Shown here: positions 1 through 45,396 of the stretch, one piece after another
Numbering within the stretch: the first letter of the stretch is position 1
Layout of the letters: the number at the start of each line of letters is the position of its first letter
From: an uncultured bacterium
GTDB taxonomy: Bacteria > Cyanobacteriota > Vampirovibrionia > Gastranaerophilales > Gastranaerophilaceae
NCBI GenBank assembly: GCA_949284715.1
Contig: CASDWH010000009.1
Location: 1 to 64,000, forward strand
DNA length: 64,000 nucleotides
Direction of reading: 5' to 3'
Program-made: the position numbers and the translations under genes
Notes under the pieces: generated by a model
What the model saw: the letters and a program-made list of their open reading frames with translations, nothing else
Database searches by the model: none
What the model was told of the DNA's origin: nothing

Positions 1-498
1 CTCTACCTCTTTTATAAATCCGTTATACTTCGCCTCAGGAGGGGTTACTGTTGTTGTTCCGCTTCCGCCTGCTGTCCCCTGCTGTTTAAATATGTTTATT
101 CCATTATATTCTGTACTATCATATATTCGCTCTGATTCACTTAACAATGAATCTATTTCACCCTGTATTCCTCGTCTGGAGGCTTCATCATATGTTCCGT
201 TCGCTGCCTGTTCTGCTAACGCACGTGTTCGCAGTAAATGCTCTGATATTACTTCCAAACTACCCATCGCTGTTGATAACATATCAAGACCCATATACGT
301 ATTCTGTTCGGCTACAGTATAAGAAGATAATTTACTGCTCATCTGTGCGCCTATTGCATATCCCGCTGCATCATCTTTGGCGTGGTTTATTCTAAATCCT
401 GTTGACAATCGTTCAAGGGCTGTATTCAGGCCGTTTGTTGCTTTATTTAGTGAATTCTGTACTATCAATGAGGAGATATTGGTATTTATGCTTACCAT
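1..498 (-). CDS. fliC: Flagellin, N-terminal 166 residues (gene runs off the left edge)
   Basis: Reading leftward from the ATG at 496-498, the frame stays open to the window edge. The translation begins MVSINTNISSLIVQNSLNKA and continues with LERLSTGFRINHAKDDAAGYAIG (split here: LERLSTGFRINHA, then KDDAAGYAIG), LAEQAANGTYDEASRRGIQ and TEYNGINIF. These are the conserved N-terminal D0/D1 helices of flagellin, the subunit of the flagellar filament secreted by the flagellar type III system. A GGAGGT Shine-Dalgarno sequence lies at about 502-507. After NGINIF comes a low-complexity GGSGTTTVT stretch, where the variable domain should begin; the rest is outside the window. Two plus-strand ORFs over 92-395 are shadows of this gene. 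Confidence 0.94.
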   Translation of the reverse strand, partial: MVSINTNISSLIVQNSLNKATNGLNTALERLSTGFRINHAKDDAAGYAIGAQMSSKLSSYTVAEQNTYMGLDMLSTAMGSLEVISEHLLRTRALAEQAANGTYDEASRRGIQGEIDSLLSESERIYDSTEYNGINIFKQQGTAGGSGTTTVTPPEAKYNGFIKEVE

Positions 499-6028: not shown

Positions 6029-6526
6029 ATGGCAGTAGATTCTATTCAAACAGTTAAGGTTAACGCACCCCAATTCAAAGCGGCTGAAAACCCGTCAATG
6101 ATAACGGAAAGACCAAACGCTGCTGAAACAAAAAAAGATGGTAATAAATTATTATACGGCTCTCTTGCAGCGCTTGGCGTATTAGCAGTAGCAGGCTTAA
6201 CCTATGGAGCCTTAAAAGGTAAGAAAGTTGATTTTGCAAAATTTAAACAACTCGGTTACAAATTTGAAAACGGCAAAATGCTAAATAAAAAGGGGAAAGC
6301 ATACACCGGTAAAATGACAGGAGAAACAAAAAGCGGAAACCGTATTACTGTTGAATACAAAGACGGTGTCAAAAATAAAATTACTATCAAATATAAAGAC
6401 GGAGATAAAAAATCCGTAACCCGTGAATATGCCCGTGATAACGACGGAAACATTATATCTACAAAGGAAACTATCGTAGATAAAGACGGGAAAGCTACAA
6501 CAGTAGAAATTGCAGCAGAAGAATAA
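6029..6526 (+). CDS. Single-pass membrane protein with YwqK/MORN-like repeats
   Basis: 165 residues. A short polar N-terminus (MAVDSIQTVKVNAPQFKAAE) precedes a hydrophobic segment YGSLAALGVLAVAGLTYGAL (about 43-62). After it come beta-rich repeats of the NGKxxxxxGKxYTGKM and EYKDGVKNKITIKYKDG kind, resembling YwqK/MORN-like repeats. An AAAGGAAAGGA ribosome site lies upstream and a terminator downstream. It shares style with the product of 26272-27126 (polar N-terminus, small-residue TM, GxLLKDxNG-like repeats). Function unknown; presumably membrane-anchored. Confidence 0.75.
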   Translation: MAVDSIQTVKVNAPQFKAAENPSMITERPNAAETKKDGNKLLYGSLAALGVLAVAGLTYGALKGKKVDFAKFKQLGYKFENGKMLNKKGKAYTGKMTGETKSGNRITVEYKDGVKNKITIKYKDGDKKSVTREYARDNDGNIISTKETIVDKDGKATTVEIAAEE

Positions 6527-26261: not shown

Positions 26262-26292
26262 ACGGGTGCCGTTACACGGTACCCGTTTTTTT
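26262..26292. terminator. Terminator after nusA that includes the last codons of the convergent gene
   Basis: ACGGGTGCCGT (26262-26272) pairs with ACGGTACCCGT (26276-26286), with one wobble, followed by T7. The final codons and stop (26272-26274) of the minus-strand gene lie inside the hairpin. Confidence 0.9.
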
Positions 26293-27126
26293 ATTTAATT
26301 TATCCAGTACAAGCCGCTGTTCTTTTAACGTCTTTGCAATCGCCTTAATATCATTAAGTTTAAGGTTATAATCATTTGTACCTTTTTTTATTTCATTTAC
26401 GATATTTTTAACCTCTAAGAGATATCCTTTTAGCTCATCACTATATTCAACCTTATCAGATGGCTTTTTATCTTTTATTATTTTATTTATTTCATCTTGT
26501 ACCCGTTTATATTTTTTATTTAACAAGGTTAATTCTAATCTTATTTTTATAATTTTACGCTGATTTTCAACCAGTTCACGACTTAATGCCTCAATCTTTG
26601 CTTCAATAATTTTCTTTTTTTCGTCTATAGTTAAAATATCTTTGGCATTTTGTATAATACGCCCCTTATTACGTCTTTCGGATGTTATTTCTTTCAACTT
26701 TCCATCTTGAATATTATATTTTACCGCATAGTAATCAATATTATCACTAAGCGGTTTACCATCTTTATCAATATTTTTACCGGAAAGTATAAGAGTACCA
26801 TCTTTATACTTTCTAAGATATTTGCCAGCTTTAGTATTATATTCAAAAATATCAGAAACCGGCGTGCCATTCACATCCTTGAGCAGCCCTGTGCCTTTTT
26901 CTATACTCAGCTTTTTTGCATCAAATAAATTATGTAATGCTGTTGTTCTTCCTTTTACTAAACTGACTCCGGCAACTATAGCGCCTGCGGCAGCAAGTGC
27001 GGAAAGCGTAGACCACAATACGGCGGAACGATTTGCATTGTATTCCTTATTGTTTTCAATTTTTGATTCGCCGGATATTCGAGAAGAAAATGTTGTTGGG
27101 GTCAATTTATTTACTAATATTGGCAT
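26272..27126 (-). CDS. Single-pass membrane protein with coiled coil, lineage-specific
   Basis: 284 residues. A polar N-terminus (MPILVNKLTPTTFSSRISGE) precedes one TM at about 34-58 (AVLWSTLSALAAAGAIVAGVSLV). Residues about 70-160 are beta-rich with GTGLLKDVNGTPVSDIFEYN and RKYKDGTLILSGKNIDKDGK, similar to the YwqK/MORN-like part of the 6029 product. About 160-284 is Lys/Glu-rich coiled coil. GGAAGAAAGGA lies before the ATG. Function unknown. Confidence 0.72.
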   Translation of the reverse strand: MPILVNKLTPTTFSSRISGESKIENNKEYNANRSAVLWSTLSALAAAGAIVAGVSLVKGRTTALHNLFDAKKLSIEKGTGLLKDVNGTPVSDIFEYNTKAGKYLRKYKDGTLILSGKNIDKDGKPLSDNIDYYAVKYNIQDGKLKEITSERRNKGRIIQNAKDILTIDEKKKIIEAKIEALSRELVENQRKIIKIRLELTLLNKKYKRVQDEINKIIKDKKPSDKVEYSDELKGYLLEVKNIVNEIKKGTNDYNLKLNDIKAIAKTLKEQRLVLDKLNKKTGTV

Positions 27127-40878: not shown

Positions 40879-41651
40879 AAAACATTTTTTCCGTTCTTAT
40901 CATACATTTTACTGCGTTTTTCAGCAATCTCTTGCAGCTTTTCCCTGTTATATCCGGCAAGCAATTCACCTATCTTTGAATAAAGCTTAAGCAAACATTG
41001 TTCAATATTCTTATGATTAAGCTCCACCATATCCATTGCCATTTCAGTGTTTGAAGAAGCAAGACGGGTCATATCTCTGAAACCGCTTGCCGCAAGCTTC
41101 ATGGCTAACTCATTTTTTGATGCAGCCTCAAAAAGTGCCTGCGCAAGAATCATAGGCATATGAGAAATCATTGCCACTGCCTTATCATGTTCCGCGGGTT
41201 TTGTATAAACAGGAACCGCACCCATAGATTTTATTAATTCTTCAAGCGGCCTAATATCAATATTTTTAAATGGAGTTATTACCCATCTGGCACCCTCAAA
41301 CAGTTCAGGAAAAGAGTTTTCATACCCGCTGAACTCCGTACCCGCCATCGGATGTGAAGGTACAAACTTAAAAGGATATTCCTTTTTAGTAACAAATTCT
41401 TTCAAACTTGATACATCAGACACAATAGTATCCGGAGAAACAAATTCAGAAAGTTTATCAAGAGTTTCGATAACAGCATTCATCGGTGTACAAACAAAAA
41501 TAACACCGCACTCTTTGAGTTTAGAATAATCAGAATAAATATCATCACCTGTTTGAGATGAAGAAATACCAATAACATCATATCCTGAAGCTTTTAATCG
41601 TTTGAATATAGAACCGCCGATTAATCCGAGTCCGATTACACCTGTTTTCAT
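40875..41651 (-). CDS. tyrA: Prephenate (or arogenate) dehydrogenase
   Basis: 258 residues. It oxidatively decarboxylates prephenate or arogenate for tyrosine synthesis. GVIGLGLIGGSIFKRL (4-19) binds NAD(P). SDVSSLKEF, VPSHPMAGTEFSGY (catalytic His) and AVAMISHMPMILAQAL are typical. No C-terminal ACT domain and no chorismate mutase part; short form. Specificity cannot be decided by eye. The start overlaps proA by four bases. Confidence 0.93.
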   Translation of the reverse strand: MKTGVIGLGLIGGSIFKRLKASGYDVIGISSSQTGDDIYSDYSKLKECGVIFVCTPMNAVIETLDKLSEFVSPDTIVSDVSSLKEFVTKKEYPFKFVPSHPMAGTEFSGYENSFPELFEGARWVITPFKNIDIRPLEELIKSMGAVPVYTKPAEHDKAVAMISHMPMILAQALFEAASKNELAMKLAASGFRDMTRLASSNTEMAMDMVELNHKNIEQCLLKLYSKIGELLAGYNREKLQEIAEKRSKMYDKNGKNVF

Positions 41652-42901
41652 AACTCTAAGTCCTTGTGGTGAAATTGTTTGGTTCCATCTGCATAATCAC
41701 CTGCGATATCACCATTGCCTCTGATAGTATATTTATAGATTGTAAGGCCTTCAAGTCCTACAGGGCCTCTGGCATGTGTTTTATTTGTTGATATACCTAC
41801 CTCTGCTCCAAAACCATATCTAAATCCGTCAGCAAACCGTGTAGACACATTATGGTAAACGCCGGCAGAATCAACCCGCCGGAGGAATTTATCAGCATTT
41901 TCTTTATTCTCGGTTATAATCGCATCTGTATGTCCGGAGCCATAAGTATTTATATGTCTGATTGCAGAATCTATATCAGTAACAATCAAATAACTTAAAA
42001 CCGTATCGGAATACTCGTGATGCCAATCTTTAGGAGTATCAACAATATCTATTCCGGAATCAATAAGAGTATCCCTGAGTGCGGGAGCATAAGGGAAATC
42101 CTTATGCACGATAACTGTTTCTACAGAATTACAGGCACTGGGATATTGAGTTTTAGCATCAACAATTATTTTTACAGCCTTTTCCAAATCCGCAGACTCA
42201 TCGACAAATATATGACAAACCCCGTCAGCATGCCCTAGGACAGGGATTTTGGTATTATTCTTAATAAACTGTACAAGTTTATTGCCGCCGCGCGGAATTA
42301 TTAAGTCAATCAATCCGTCGCATTTCAACATCTCAGCGACATCTTCTCTTGTAAAAATCTGCTGTAATGCATCTTTCGGAAATCCTTCAACTTCACCTGC
42401 CGCTGATTTTATCAATTCAAAAAGAATTTTGTTTGTATTAACCGCTTCTTTACCACCCTTTAAAATAACCGCGTTCGCTGATTTAATGGCAAGTGCGGAT
42501 ACCTGCACAATTACGTCCGGTCTTGCTTCAAAAATAACACCGAGAACCCCGATAGGGCAGGATATCTTTTCCAGAATAATTCCTTCATCTAACTGTCGTC
42601 TTAGCAACATTTTATTGACCGGATCCGGCAATAAAATCAAATCCCTTATCCCCTGCACCATATCACGTAATTTGTTTTCATCAAGTTTCAATCGTTTATA
42701 AACCGCCGGTGTAATCTCACCTGATAAAACAAGCTGTTTGGCAGCCTCTAAATCCTTTAGATTCGCCTCAAAAATTGCGGCTGCATTTTGTTCCAGTTTA
42801 TCCGCCGAATTTTGCAAAACTCTGTTTTTTAATTCAGTATCTGCATCAGCAAGTTTTAATGCCGCATCCTTTGCACTCTTTGCAATTTCTGTAAAATCCA
42901 T
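41648..42901 (-). CDS. proA: Gamma-glutamyl phosphate reductase
   Basis: 417 residues. ProA reduces gamma-glutamyl phosphate to glutamate semialdehyde in proline synthesis. CPIGVLGVIFEARPDV, ILKGGKEAVNTN, the catalytic Cys region QYPSACNSVETVIVH, and GSGHTDAIIT with FGAEVGISTNKTHARGPVGLEGL (part: GAEVGISTNKTHARGPVG) are present. proB is not in the window. Coupled to tyrA. Confidence 0.97.
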   Translation of the reverse strand: MDFTEIAKSAKDAALKLADADTELKNRVLQNSADKLEQNAAAIFEANLKDLEAAKQLVLSGEITPAVYKRLKLDENKLRDMVQGIRDLILLPDPVNKMLLRRQLDEGIILEKISCPIGVLGVIFEARPDVIVQVSALAIKSANAVILKGGKEAVNTNKILFELIKSAAGEVEGFPKDALQQIFTREDVAEMLKCDGLIDLIIPRGGNKLVQFIKNNTKIPVLGHADGVCHIFVDESADLEKAVKIIVDAKTQYPSACNSVETVIVHKDFPYAPALRDTLIDSGIDIVDTPKDWHHEYSDTVLSYLIVTDIDSAIRHINTYGSGHTDAIITENKENADKFLRRVDSAGVYHNVSTRFADGFRYGFGAEVGISTNKTHARGPVGLEGLTIYKYTIRGNGDIAGDYADGTKQFHHKDLEL

Positions 42902-43080: not shown

Positions 43081-44262
43081 ATGAATTTAACAATTACTCC
43101 CAATTTATTTCGTTTTGTAAAAAATGAAGCGCAACAAACACAACCGCAAACAAAAACAAGCATATACCCAAATCTGGCACCGCTTGTAAAAGACACCGTT
43201 TCCTTCGGTGTTGGTGAAAAACAACTAAAAGCAGGGCAAAGATTATCAAAACAATTTGGTATGAATATGGCAATAACTCTTGAAAAGCCGTTTACAATGT
43301 TTAAAAACAAATTAGAAAGCGCCTTTTCCTCGATGAAATCAACTGAAAACCATCCGGACAGACCTATTTACAAAATAAAAACAAGAATGAAATCACCCGA
43401 ATCTATTGCCGAAAAAGGCGGAGCAAGAGATGTAAAAAACTTTACAGAATTAACACAAAAAATTCAGGATATGATTGGCGGGCGCCTTATTATGCGCGAC
43501 ACTTCAAAAGAAAGCATAAATATGGTTCTAAAAAAATTTGAAGATATGGTGTTAAAAGGAGAATTATCAATTACGGAAATTGAAAACTTCTATGGAGATC
43601 CAAAACTGGCTTATGCAACAGAAAAGCAGTTAAAACCGCTCATAAAAGCCTGTGAAAAAATGATTGGGCCGATAAGATTCTCTCAGGAAAAACACCCGAT
43701 GGGATACAATGCTATACATATGACAGTTAAATTTCCGCCCAGCAAATATGGAGAAACCTACGCAGAAATTCAAATTATGGGGTCTGATATTGCCGCGCTT
43801 AAAGATGTTGAAGACTTAACCTACAAAATAAGATGCGGCAAAGCAATACAAAGCAAATATAAACCTATGATGAAATATCTTAAACCGTTACAGGATGGTG
43901 ATGATACTTTAAAAAACGCATTTGCAGACTATACAAGACAAGCTTATTTACATCAAAGGAGAAGGAAAAGTATTACACTAAAGGAGCTGCAAGAACGTGA
44001 AACACCGGATTTTCTGCCGCTTCCGTGGTATATTTCCAATAAAGAACTCGATTTCAACTTTCTGTATAAAAAGATGAAAGAGTGCGAAGAGGCGGCTGCA
44101 AAAGCAAAAAATACAGTTAAAAAGACAACCGCTGCAAAAACGAACAAAGCAAAGACAACCAGACAAGCTGCAGCAAAAACGGAAAGTAAAACCACTCCGG
44201 CAAAAAAGTTACAAACCTCTGAAAACATTTCGGGACTTGCAATCTTTGATGAAATCGTATAA
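43081..44262 (+). CDS. RelA/SpoT-fold nucleotidyltransferase-like protein with VSFG N-terminus and Lys/Ala tail
   Basis: 393 residues. Residues 1-60 are polar and contain KDTVSFG (V40-G43). Residues about 96-255 look like a (p)ppGpp-synthetase fold: IKTRMKSPESIAEKG (R102, K104), IQDMIGGRLIM (D130), GYNAIHMTV (208-216) and YAEIQI (E229). These align by eye with RxK..SI..K, DLIAIRxIM, GYxSIH and IEIQIRT of RelA/SpoT. There is no HD, TGS or ACT domain. The tail from about 335 is Ala/Lys/Thr-rich (KKTTAAKTNKAKTTRQAAAK). AAGGTAAG precedes the ATG and TACAAT lies at 43051-43056. Could make alarmones, modify RNA or act on another target; not a standard RelA or small alarmone synthetase. Confidence 0.75.
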   Translation: MNLTITPNLFRFVKNEAQQTQPQTKTSIYPNLAPLVKDTVSFGVGEKQLKAGQRLSKQFGMNMAITLEKPFTMFKNKLESAFSSMKSTENHPDRPIYKIKTRMKSPESIAEKGGARDVKNFTELTQKIQDMIGGRLIMRDTSKESINMVLKKFEDMVLKGELSITEIENFYGDPKLAYATEKQLKPLIKACEKMIGPIRFSQEKHPMGYNAIHMTVKFPPSKYGETYAEIQIMGSDIAALKDVEDLTYKIRCGKAIQSKYKPMMKYLKPLQDGDDTLKNAFADYTRQAYLHQRRRKSITLKELQERETPDFLPLPWYISNKELDFNFLYKKMKECEEAAAKAKNTVKKTTAAKTNKAKTTRQAAAKTESKTTPAKKLQTSENISGLAIFDEIV

Positions 44263-44281
44263 GATTTTCATATAGCACAAT

Positions 44282-44363
44282 GCCGACGTGATGAAATCGG
44301 TAAACATGCACGTTTCAGATGCGTGTGGAGAAATCCTTGCGGGTTCAAGTCCCGCCGTCGGCA
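44282..44363 (+). tRNA. tRNA-Leu, anticodon CAG
   Basis: Acceptor GCCGACG (44282-44288) pairs with CGTCGGC (44356-44362), discriminator A at 44363. The anticodon stem CACGT/GCGTG encloses TTCAGAT, giving CAG (codon CUG). A variable arm of class II length and GGGTTCAAGTCCC T-arm are present. CCA is not encoded. The 3' end is duplicated at 44526-44546. Confidence 0.94.
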
Positions 44364-44371
44364 GATAAAAG

Positions 44372-44550: not shown

Positions 44551-45396
44551 TTAATCATTATTCTTTATCTGCTTAGTTTCTTTGTTTGCAGGAAGAAAAT
44601 TATTATCAGTTACAACTTTTGCACCTGTTCTTTGTTCAAAGTCCTCTTTTGCACATTTAGCAATATTCCCGCCGACTTTAGCTGCCTTTTTATTTTCCGG
44701 CATGCCTGTTGCATTTTCACTTTCGGCAACTTGCCTTGTAGAAAGTTCCGCCAGCGCCGTAAAAATCAATTCAGCCTCACTCATATGATCTCTGAGGTTT
44801 TGAGATTTCAATCCTTTAAGATTTTTGTGTTCTTTTACAGATAATCCACTCCATTCCTGATGAATAATATTTGTAAGGATAGCGTATTCTTCACCTTCTT
44901 TTATATCATGTTCAGCCCAGTAATCTGTTAACTTATTTCCGGTTTCCTGTCCTGTCATTCTCTGTTGAATCCATTTTTCAGAACGACCGAGTTTTTTATA
45001 TGTTTCTCTTGCCCTGTCAATCGCGGCTGCCGGGTCAGCCATTTCCTGAACTCTTTCCTGTCCGACTTTTGCAAGCCATTGCTTAATCGGTTCAGCTTTT
45101 TTAGAAGGGACAGATTGAATTATGCGAAAAATCGTTTTAATATCAGCAACATCAGTCTTTCGCATTTTGCCGTCATCCGCTGGCAATTTCAACTGGTAAC
45201 AAATTGTTACCAGTTCGGTAAATCCTTCATTAACAAGCCTTCCTTTTAAAACTTTCCAGTATTTTCTTGCGGATTGATAATCTTTTTCAATCAAAATTGC
45301 AATTATATCAACTACAGAAAAATAATATATTTCTTTTTCTTCGTCATATATATGTCTAATTCTATTTCCTTCAAATAAACTTAAATCGTCGGTCAT
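44551..45396 (-). CDS. dinD: DinD/BRO-N family protein
   Basis: 281 residues. The N-terminal BRO-like domain has NRIRHIYDEEKEIYYFSVVDIIAILI and YWKVLKGRL, then LVTICYQLKLPADDGKMRKTDVADIKTIFRIIQSVPSKKAEPIKQWLA (in parts). The middle holds RARETYKKLGRSEKWIQQRM, as in DNA-damage-inducible protein D. BRO/DinD genes are common cargo of phages and islands; DinD inhibits RecA filaments in E. coli. AGAGGAT precedes the ATG. Its place beside tRNA-Leu and the duplicated tRNA end suggests acquisition. Confidence 0.88.
   Translation of the reverse strand: MTDDLSLFEGNRIRHIYDEEKEIYYFSVVDIIAILIEKDYQSARKYWKVLKGRLVNEGFTELVTICYQLKLPADDGKMRKTDVADIKTIFRIIQSVPSKKAEPIKQWLAKVGQERVQEMADPAAAIDRARETYKKLGRSEKWIQQRMTGQETGNKLTDYWAEHDIKEGEEYAILTNIIHQEWSGLSVKEHKNLKGLKSQNLRDHMSEAELIFTALAELSTRQVAESENATGMPENKKAAKVGGNIAKCAKEDFEQRTGAKVVTDNNFLPANKETKQIKNND

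What the first reader, a model, noticed from the sequence alone, without database searches (positions are those of the whole stretch)
43081..44262. Non-canonical RelA/SpoT-fold protein with intact catalytic motifs
Seen: RxK..SI..K (R102, K104), DMIGGRLIM (D130), GYNAIH (208-213) and AEIQ (E229) appear in the order and approximate spacing of the (p)ppGpp synthetase domain. HD, TGS and ACT domains are absent. The protein adds a polar N-terminus with VSFG and a long Ala/Lys/Thr tail. Known: RelA/SpoT-fold enzymes include small alarmone synthetases, toxic synthetases (toxSAS) and tRNA-modifying forms. Inference: the tail suggests nucleic-acid or ribosome association. The gene sits next to tRNA-Leu and an island-like locus. 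No antitoxin-like small gene is adjacent, so a simple toxSAS pair is not supported.
Basis: partly seen in the sequence, partly recalled or inferred. Interest (0 to 1): 0.62.

Follow-up and report, generated by a model that had tools for sequence, protein, structure and literature searches.

The report
Alarmone synthetase-like enzyme with sorting tag
A gut bacterium related to cyanobacteria carries an enzyme of the "stringent response" alarmone-maker type whose front end bears a short tag, also found on many unrelated proteins of the same bacterial order, that looks like a shipping label, so the enzyme may be sent out of the cell.

Summary
ORF 43081-44262 (+, 393 aa) is a SYNTH-only RelA/SpoT homologue: PF04607 above cut-off, an AlphaFold2 model (pLDDT 83) matching RelP/RelQ, CapRel and the exported synthetase SaEAS, and invariant catalytic residues in 43 homologues. 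The host is a Candidatus Gastranaerophilales genome, which has a separate canonical Rel. There is no antitoxin or immunity gene here or at relatives' loci.

The same motif begins many unrelated proteins (HNH-like, ankyrin, protease, PRPP synthetase). It was found in 43 of 48 genomes of this family and 0 of 69 outside the order; dN/dS is 0.04 in the motif. I read it as a sorting signal, most likely for export. All 39 order genomes keep a second FlhA-type type III export gate, even where flagellin is lost: the leading candidate route (inferred, not shown). The Ala/Lys/Thr tail is genus-specific and weakly constrained.

Verdict: a real pyrophosphokinase-fold enzyme; new variant of a known kind.

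The parts
43081..44262 (+). gene for a SYNTH-only RelA/SpoT-fold protein, 393 aa
   Evidence: ORF; PF04607 28.7 bits, cut-off 27; 43-member family; fold match to SAS, CapRel and SaEAS
43084..43164 (+). N-terminal leader, residues 2-28: disordered, Asn/Gln/Thr/Pro-rich, nearly free of acidic residues, fast-evolving
   Evidence: pLDDT about 40; D+E 1.6% in the family against 10.1% background, N+S+T+Q+P 46% against 25%, over residues 2-30; dN/dS about 0.5
43165..43221 (+). conserved N-terminal motif, residues 29-47 (YPNLAPLVKDTVSFGVGEK), putative sorting signal
   Evidence: D and F 29/29, L at -3 27/29, P at -4 23/29 in non-redundant members; shared with unrelated proteins, near the N-terminus; 43/48 family genomes against 0/69 outside the order; dN/dS 0.04
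43249..43845 (+). synthetase (nucleotidyltransferase-fold) domain, about residues 57-255
   Evidence: AlphaFold2 pLDDT mostly above 90; Foldseek to RelP/RelQ; dN/dS 0.05-0.08 for residues 55-345
43384..43416 (+). R102-x-K104-x3-S108-x3-K112, ATP-side motif
   Evidence: K104 and K112 invariant, R102 and S108 at least 90% in A4; aligned with SAS structures
43468..43485 (+). D130-x4-R135 (DMIGGR), Mg-binding Asp by analogy with SAS
   Evidence: D130 invariant, R135 at least 90%
43702..43719 (+). G208-Y209-x3-H213, G-loop (GYNAIH)
   Evidence: Y209 and H213 invariant
43765..43776 (+). E229-I-Q231-I (EIQI), second Mg ligand by analogy; followed by the family-specific M-G in place of the SAS R-T
   Evidence: E229, Q231, I232 and G234 invariant
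43852..44181 (+). C-terminal helical region, residues 258-367
   Evidence: model helices 258-272, 275-294, 325-367
44182..44259 (+). end of the low-complexity Ala/Lys/Thr tail, residues 368-393, disordered, genus-specific
   Evidence: pLDDT below 50; absent from other genera; dN/dS 0.37-0.46 for residues 346-393
44281..44364 (+). tRNA-Leu (CAG) just downstream; conserved neighbour within the genus only
   Evidence: ARAGORN
41648..42901 (-). divergent upstream neighbour, proA-like by sequence reading; housekeeping, not part of the system
   Evidence: ORF; same neighbour in L134 and L135

Best explanation
The gene encodes an ATP-dependent pyrophosphokinase of the RelA/SpoT fold (SYNTH domain only) that would transfer pyrophosphate from ATP to a 3'-OH of GDP/GTP, or of another nucleotide or tRNA. 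It works outside the stringent-response circuit of the producing cell, which has its own canonical Rel. It carries a disordered leader followed by an L-x-P-L-x-x-D-T-[VI]-S-F-[SGT] motif, a sorting signal used by the Gastranaerophilales on many otherwise unrelated proteins. The signal most likely sends the protein out of the cytoplasm; the best candidate machine is the second, FlhA/SctV-type type III export apparatus kept by every genome of the order that was searched. Shown computationally: fold, conserved catalytic site, purifying selection, shared motif and its lineage restriction, presence of the second export gate. Inferred: catalytic activity, substrate, that the motif is a sorting signal, export, the export route, and any target cell.
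For: Fold and site. Selection on core and motif. Motif shared by unrelated proteins and within the first 70 residues in 25 of 27 scored cases against 6.4 expected if placed at random. Lineage restriction, 43/48 against 0/69 genomes. Leader composition typical of type III signals and no transmembrane segment. Separate canonical Rel (748-aa frame). Second FliE/FliF/FliH/FlhA set and FliI-type ATPase, retained in flagellin-less genomes; 9 of 12 flagellin-less genomes carry motif proteins. Precedent for exported alarmone synthetases, including T3SS-linked XopAD types and single genes without immunity gene: PMC12691689.
Against: No experiment shows export. Some motif carriers look metabolic (PRPP synthetase L099, M29 peptidase L259, GH130 phosphorylase L254), which fits an intracellular address at least as well. 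The second export gate is present in all genomes, so co-occurrence cannot be tested. Its nearest curated models are flagellar (FlhA, FliF, FliE) and no secretin, needle or translocon was looked for. Known T3SS signals have no strict consensus motif (my knowledge). Substrate specificity cannot be read from sequence; the family has M-G where SAS have R-T after EIQI.
Confidence: 0.5

Rival explanations
1. An intracellular small alarmone synthetase. It makes (p)ppGpp as a second, stress-specific source next to Rel, and the N-terminal motif is an intracellular address or docking peptide (pole, membrane surface, protein compartment) shared with other enzymes.
For: The nearest solved structures are ordinary cytoplasmic SAS. 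Carriers include metabolic enzymes. Genes sit singly between housekeeping genes in stable, clade-specific positions.
Against: The leader composition is like that of type III substrates. Many carriers are effector-like (ankyrin repeats, HNH-like), and divergent RSH domains occur in giant multidomain proteins. Constitutive extra SYNTH activity without an HD domain would need tight control, and none is visible.
Confidence: 0.33
2. A toxSAS or CapRel-like tRNA pyrophosphokinase acting in a toxin-antitoxin module or in phage defence.
For: Fold match to Salmonella CapRel (E 2.7e-4) and FaRel2 (E about 0.02); a phage-type BRO-N gene and a tRNA gene lie downstream.
Against: No conserved small toxin-antitoxin-like neighbour in about 43 loci; no PADLOC or PHROGs match to the protein; positions are stable within clades, and the BRO-N/tRNA neighbourhood is local.
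Confidence: 0.12
3. A catalytically dead relic or a binding-only pseudo-enzyme.
For: The PF04607 score is only just above cut-off, and one paralogue group (L008/L010) has lost G208 and Q231.
Against: In the main family all catalytic residues are invariant or nearly so and the core is under strong purifying selection.
Confidence: 0.05

Closest known systems
Small alarmone synthetases RelP/SAS2 and RelQ/SAS1 (YwaC, YjbM)
   Same: SYNTH-only architecture, same fold, one-to-one catalytic residues
   Different: About 18% identity; extra disordered leader and motif, M-G instead of R-T after EIQI, long C-terminal helical region; lineage-restricted
Exported alarmone synthetases (EAS; SaEAS, VpEAS, Apk1/Tas1, XopAD-type), PMC12691689
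   Same: Same fold (SaEAS 8vx3, E 3.4e-4); single genes without immunity gene, as for SaEAS and VpEAS; N-terminal sorting element suspected
   Different: No Sec signal peptide and no known secretion domain; the main text of the survey does not mention cyanobacteria, Melainabacteria or Gastranaerophilales; the motif here is unlike any listed there
toxSAS / CapRel tRNA pyrophosphokinases
   Same: SYNTH fold (7ztb E 2.7e-4)
   Different: No antitoxin gene beside it and no recognised antitoxin domain
Canonical Rel of the same genome (G000:C34:7896-8225, 748-aa frame)
   Same: Shares PF04607
   Different: 154 bits against 29 bits; the long form, at another locus

Membership tests
RelA/SpoT homologue (RSH) synthetase superfamily | PF04607 above curated cut-off and SYNTH fold | tested here: met
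   28.7 bits against 27; Foldseek to 39 chains at E at most 1e-3, all SAS, CapRel or SaEAS
RelA/SpoT homologue (RSH) synthetase superfamily | Catalytic RxK, D, GY..H, ExQ residues | tested here: met
   invariant or at least 90% conserved in 43 members; aligned with SAS
RelA/SpoT homologue (RSH) synthetase superfamily | Pyrophosphate transfer from ATP to a 3'-OH | not testable with these tools
   needs an enzyme assay
Small alarmone synthetase (SAS) | No HD, TGS or ACT domain | tested here: met
   only RelA_SpoT above threshold
Small alarmone synthetase (SAS) | Acceptor is GDP/GTP; RelQ-like tetramer | not testable with these tools
   substrate and oligomer need biochemistry
toxSAS (toxin-antitoxin) | Adjacent antitoxin or immunity gene | tested here: not met
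   no recurrent small antitoxin-like neighbour in the family loci; none beside the window gene
toxSAS / CapRel | tRNA CCA-end pyrophosphorylation or fused antitoxin domain | tested here: inconclusive
   no such domain found by Pfam or PADLOC; activity untested
Exported alarmone synthetase (EAS) | Sec signal peptide or a known secretion-system domain (WXG/LXG, XopAD, MuF, DUF4157, Rhs/PAAR) | tested here: not met
   no hydrophobic segment (largest window hydropathy in the family 1.41); no such Pfam domain at E up to 1
Exported alarmone synthetase (EAS) | Export from the producing cell | not testable with these tools
   inferred only, from leader composition and the shared motif
Type III secretion substrate | Disordered N-terminus rich in N/S/T/Q/P and poor in acidic residues | tested here: met
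   72% of family members and 61% of other carriers pass a simple filter, against 4.4% of background ORFs; low pLDDT at residues 1-50
Type III secretion substrate | Secretion that depends on the export gate | not testable with these tools
   needs genetics; the gate is universal in the order

The most novel reading that the evidence does not exclude
Gastranaerophilales, a common and mostly uncultured gut order, use a second, non-flagellar FlhA/FliF-type type III export machine to send a set of proteins marked by a consensus N-terminal motif (LxPLxxDT[VI]SF[SGT]) into neighbouring bacteria or host cells, and an alarmone synthetase is one of these effectors. A type III signal with a recognisable consensus and a new exported RSH clade would both be new.
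Probability: 0.27. Interest if true: 0.85.

Novelty: new variant of a known kind. Interest (0 to 1): 0.6.

Why it matters
RSH enzymes are known as stringent-response regulators, toxins and, recently, exported enzymes. This family adds a clade in a mostly uncultured gut order, and its address tag is shared by dozens of other proteins. If the tag is an export signal, it gives a sequence handle for listing the candidate secretome of an order known mainly from metagenomes, and points to a specific machine to test.

Tried and rejected
1) Tail as nucleic-acid binder: genus-specific and weakly constrained. 2) toxSAS pair: no neighbour. 3) Flagellar export as the only route: motif proteins occur in 9 of 12 flagellin-less genomes. 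4) The large count of the DNA pattern in G026 is a DNA repeat (GACACAGTCACNTT), not the protein motif. 5) A generic [VI][STC]F[GSTKA] pattern is not enriched at N-termini in genome samples; only the longer motif is informative, and in the sampled part of the own genome the strict form occurs only in this gene. 6) A second motif-bearing family (A5) looked RSH-like at 97% hhalign probability, but with the N-terminus removed the probability falls to 6% (E 0.006, collinear catalytic motifs; reversed control E 0.19), so homology stays unproven. 8) Literature: no paper found in the library ties Gastranaerophilales or Melainabacteria to type III effectors or SAS.

Full report
Observation. The ORF at 43081-44262 (+) encodes 393 residues. 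Pfam finds one domain, RelA_SpoT, at residues 101-236 with 28.7 bits against a cut-off of 27; single-sequence comparison with solved structures gives only weak hits to small alarmone synthetases. The genome (G000, 2.0 Mb, window = contig C9:1-64000) has one canonical Rel elsewhere (C34, 748-aa frame, 154 bits). Relatives are in genomes titled Candidatus Gastranaerophilales, Melainabacteria or uncultured bacterium. tRNA-Leu(CAG) starts 19 bases after the stop codon and is a fixed neighbour only within the genus.

Family and fold. A scan of GTDB species genomes gave 42 relatives; with the window protein they make alignment A4. K104, K112, D130, Y209, H213, E229 and Q231 are invariant and R102, S108, R135 and G208 nearly so; further invariants peculiar to the family follow EIQI (G234, K241, D245, K249). 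A profile of A4 finds YwaC (SAS2) at 1e-10 and other SAS, with the catalytic motifs aligned in order. AlphaFold2 with this alignment gives mean pLDDT 82.9 and pTM 0.74; residues 55-355 are well folded, 1-50 and 368-393 mostly are not. Foldseek against the PDB returns RelP/SAS2 (E 2.7e-6), RelQ/SAS1 (target TM up to 0.66), Salmonella CapRel (2.7e-4) and SaEAS (3.4e-4); FaRel2 is weaker. The protein is thus a SYNTH-fold enzyme with an intact site. Whether it uses GDP/GTP, adenine nucleotides or tRNA is not decided by these data.

The N-terminal motif. In nearly all relatives the start is a variable, Asn-rich leader followed at residue 27-65 by L-x-P-L-x-x-D-T-[VI]-S-F-[SGT]. In 29 non-redundant members D and F are invariant, L(-3) 27/29, P(-4) 23/29, L(-6) 25/29. 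Between the window gene and its nearest orthologue dN/dS is 0.04 in the motif and 0.08 in the core, but 0.49 in residues 2-30 and 0.46 in the tail; synonymous differences in the motif region are many (pS 0.61), so this is protein-level, not DNA-level, conservation.

The motif is not confined to this family. A DNA pattern and a profile of the motif (A3) find it at the start of unrelated ORFs: HNH-like proteins, ankyrin-repeat proteins, an M29 metallopeptidase, a GH130 phosphorylase, a PRPP synthetase, calpain-like and kinase-like proteins by eye, and families without Pfam match. In the best-scoring loci the motif lies within the first 70 residues in 25 of 27 scorable cases, against 6.4 expected for random placement; homologous members make these not fully independent. 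Across the phylum, 43 of 48 genomes of the family have a hit at E at most 0.01 and 0 of 69 genomes outside the order do. Leaders of the family and of the other carriers have 1.6% and 3.3% acidic residues against 10.1% in background ORFs, and 45-46% N+S+T+Q+P against 25%; 72% and 61% pass a simple filter that 4.4% of background ORFs pass; none of the 71 proteins has a 19-residue window above hydropathy 1.6, against 34% of the background. The motif itself lies mostly outside the residues scored, so selection of proteins by motif does not force this composition. One of the 31 'other carriers' is a wrong ORF of locus L264; it does not change the picture.

Export route. All 39 genomes of the order have FlhA-type FHIPEP proteins. 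Twelve lack flagellin. A second full-length FlhA-type protein scoring about 690-730 bits is seen in flagellated and flagellin-less genomes alike. In G000 it lies in a cluster FliE - FliF/YscJ - 338-aa protein - FliH - FlhA, with a FliI/YscN-type ATPase about 17 kb further on, and the same gene order is seen in flagellin-less G012. FlhB is likewise present once in most flagellin-less genomes and twice in most flagellated ones (G000 shows one, and it is a draft of 42 contigs). Nine of the twelve flagellin-less genomes have motif proteins. This makes a non-flagellar type III route plausible for the motif proteins. It is an inference: the machine is universal in the order, so no presence/absence test is possible, and secretin, needle and translocon were not searched. 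NCBIfam places the parts nearer flagellar than injectisome models; the gate and ring proteins fall below the cut-offs of both.

Neighbours and context. Family genes sit alone among housekeeping genes, with clade-specific positions (proA/tRNA-Leu; a SIS-domain/outer-membrane-efflux-like cluster; YraN-like and oxidoreductase genes; a pgi-like gene), without a recurring antitoxin-like partner (gene names by sequence reading). PADLOC and PHROGs give nothing for the protein. This argues against a toxin-antitoxin or defence module and resembles the isolated, immunity-free exported alarmone synthetases of Streptomyces and Vibrio (PMC12691689). That study lists Sec, WXG/LXG, XopAD, MuF, DUF4157 and Rhs/PAAR routes; the motif described here is none of these.

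Related architectures. Divergent RSH domains also occur in this order as parts of larger proteins: behind a hydrophobic, glycine-rich segment (L012, L013, L015, L017) and at the C-terminal side of a giant protein with a putative metallopeptidase region (L018), or inside one (L016). Such placements are usual for effectors or polymorphic toxins, but activity is unknown.

Weighing (my estimates). That this is a SYNTH-fold enzyme under selection is nearly certain (about 0.95); that it is active, about 0.8; that the motif is a sorting or docking signal, about 0.75; that the signal means export, about 0.5; that the route is the second type III gate, about 0.3.

Noticed in passing
L266:6109-12060 (G000:C20) and L267:9409-10752: Second set of type III export genes (FliE, FliF/YscJ, 338-aa protein without Pfam match, FliH, FlhA; FliI/YscN-type ATPase about 17 kb away), kept in flagellin-less genomes of the order.
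   Followed up: partly
L269:10400-11869 (-) (G000:C7): Stand-alone protein of about 489 aa with only the C-terminal (cytoplasmic) half of the FlhA/SctV family; a similar protein of about 480-545 aa appears in nearly all genomes of the order.
   Followed up: no
L016, L018, L012, L013, L015, L017: Divergent RelA_SpoT-like domains inside larger proteins, some behind hydrophobic segments, one giant protein also having a putative metallopeptidase region.
   Followed up: partly
L251, L249, L248, L089, L257, L262 (alignment A5): Second motif-bearing family with a collinear K..S..K / D..R / Y / E pattern; remote RSH relationship suggested but not proven.
   Followed up: partly
L099, L259, L254: Metabolic-type enzymes (PRPP synthetase, M29 peptidase, GH130 phosphorylase) carrying the same N-terminal motif.
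   Followed up: no
window 44551-45396 (-): Phage-type BRO-N protein (PADLOC PDC-S13, phrog_15286) next to tRNA-Leu; likely a mobile-element remnant.
   Followed up: partly
window 6029-6526 and 26272-27126: Short proteins with a polar N-terminus (PQFKA, TTFSSR) followed by a hydrophobic Gly/Ala segment; perhaps a looser version of the same kind of N-terminal element.
   Followed up: no
G026 (46 places, e.g. L104-L133): Dispersed DNA repeat GACACAGTCACNTT, about 40 copies; the enrichment is seen in this genome only.
   Followed up: no
window 76-489 (-): Flagellin N-terminal domain ORF at the window edge.
   Followed up: no
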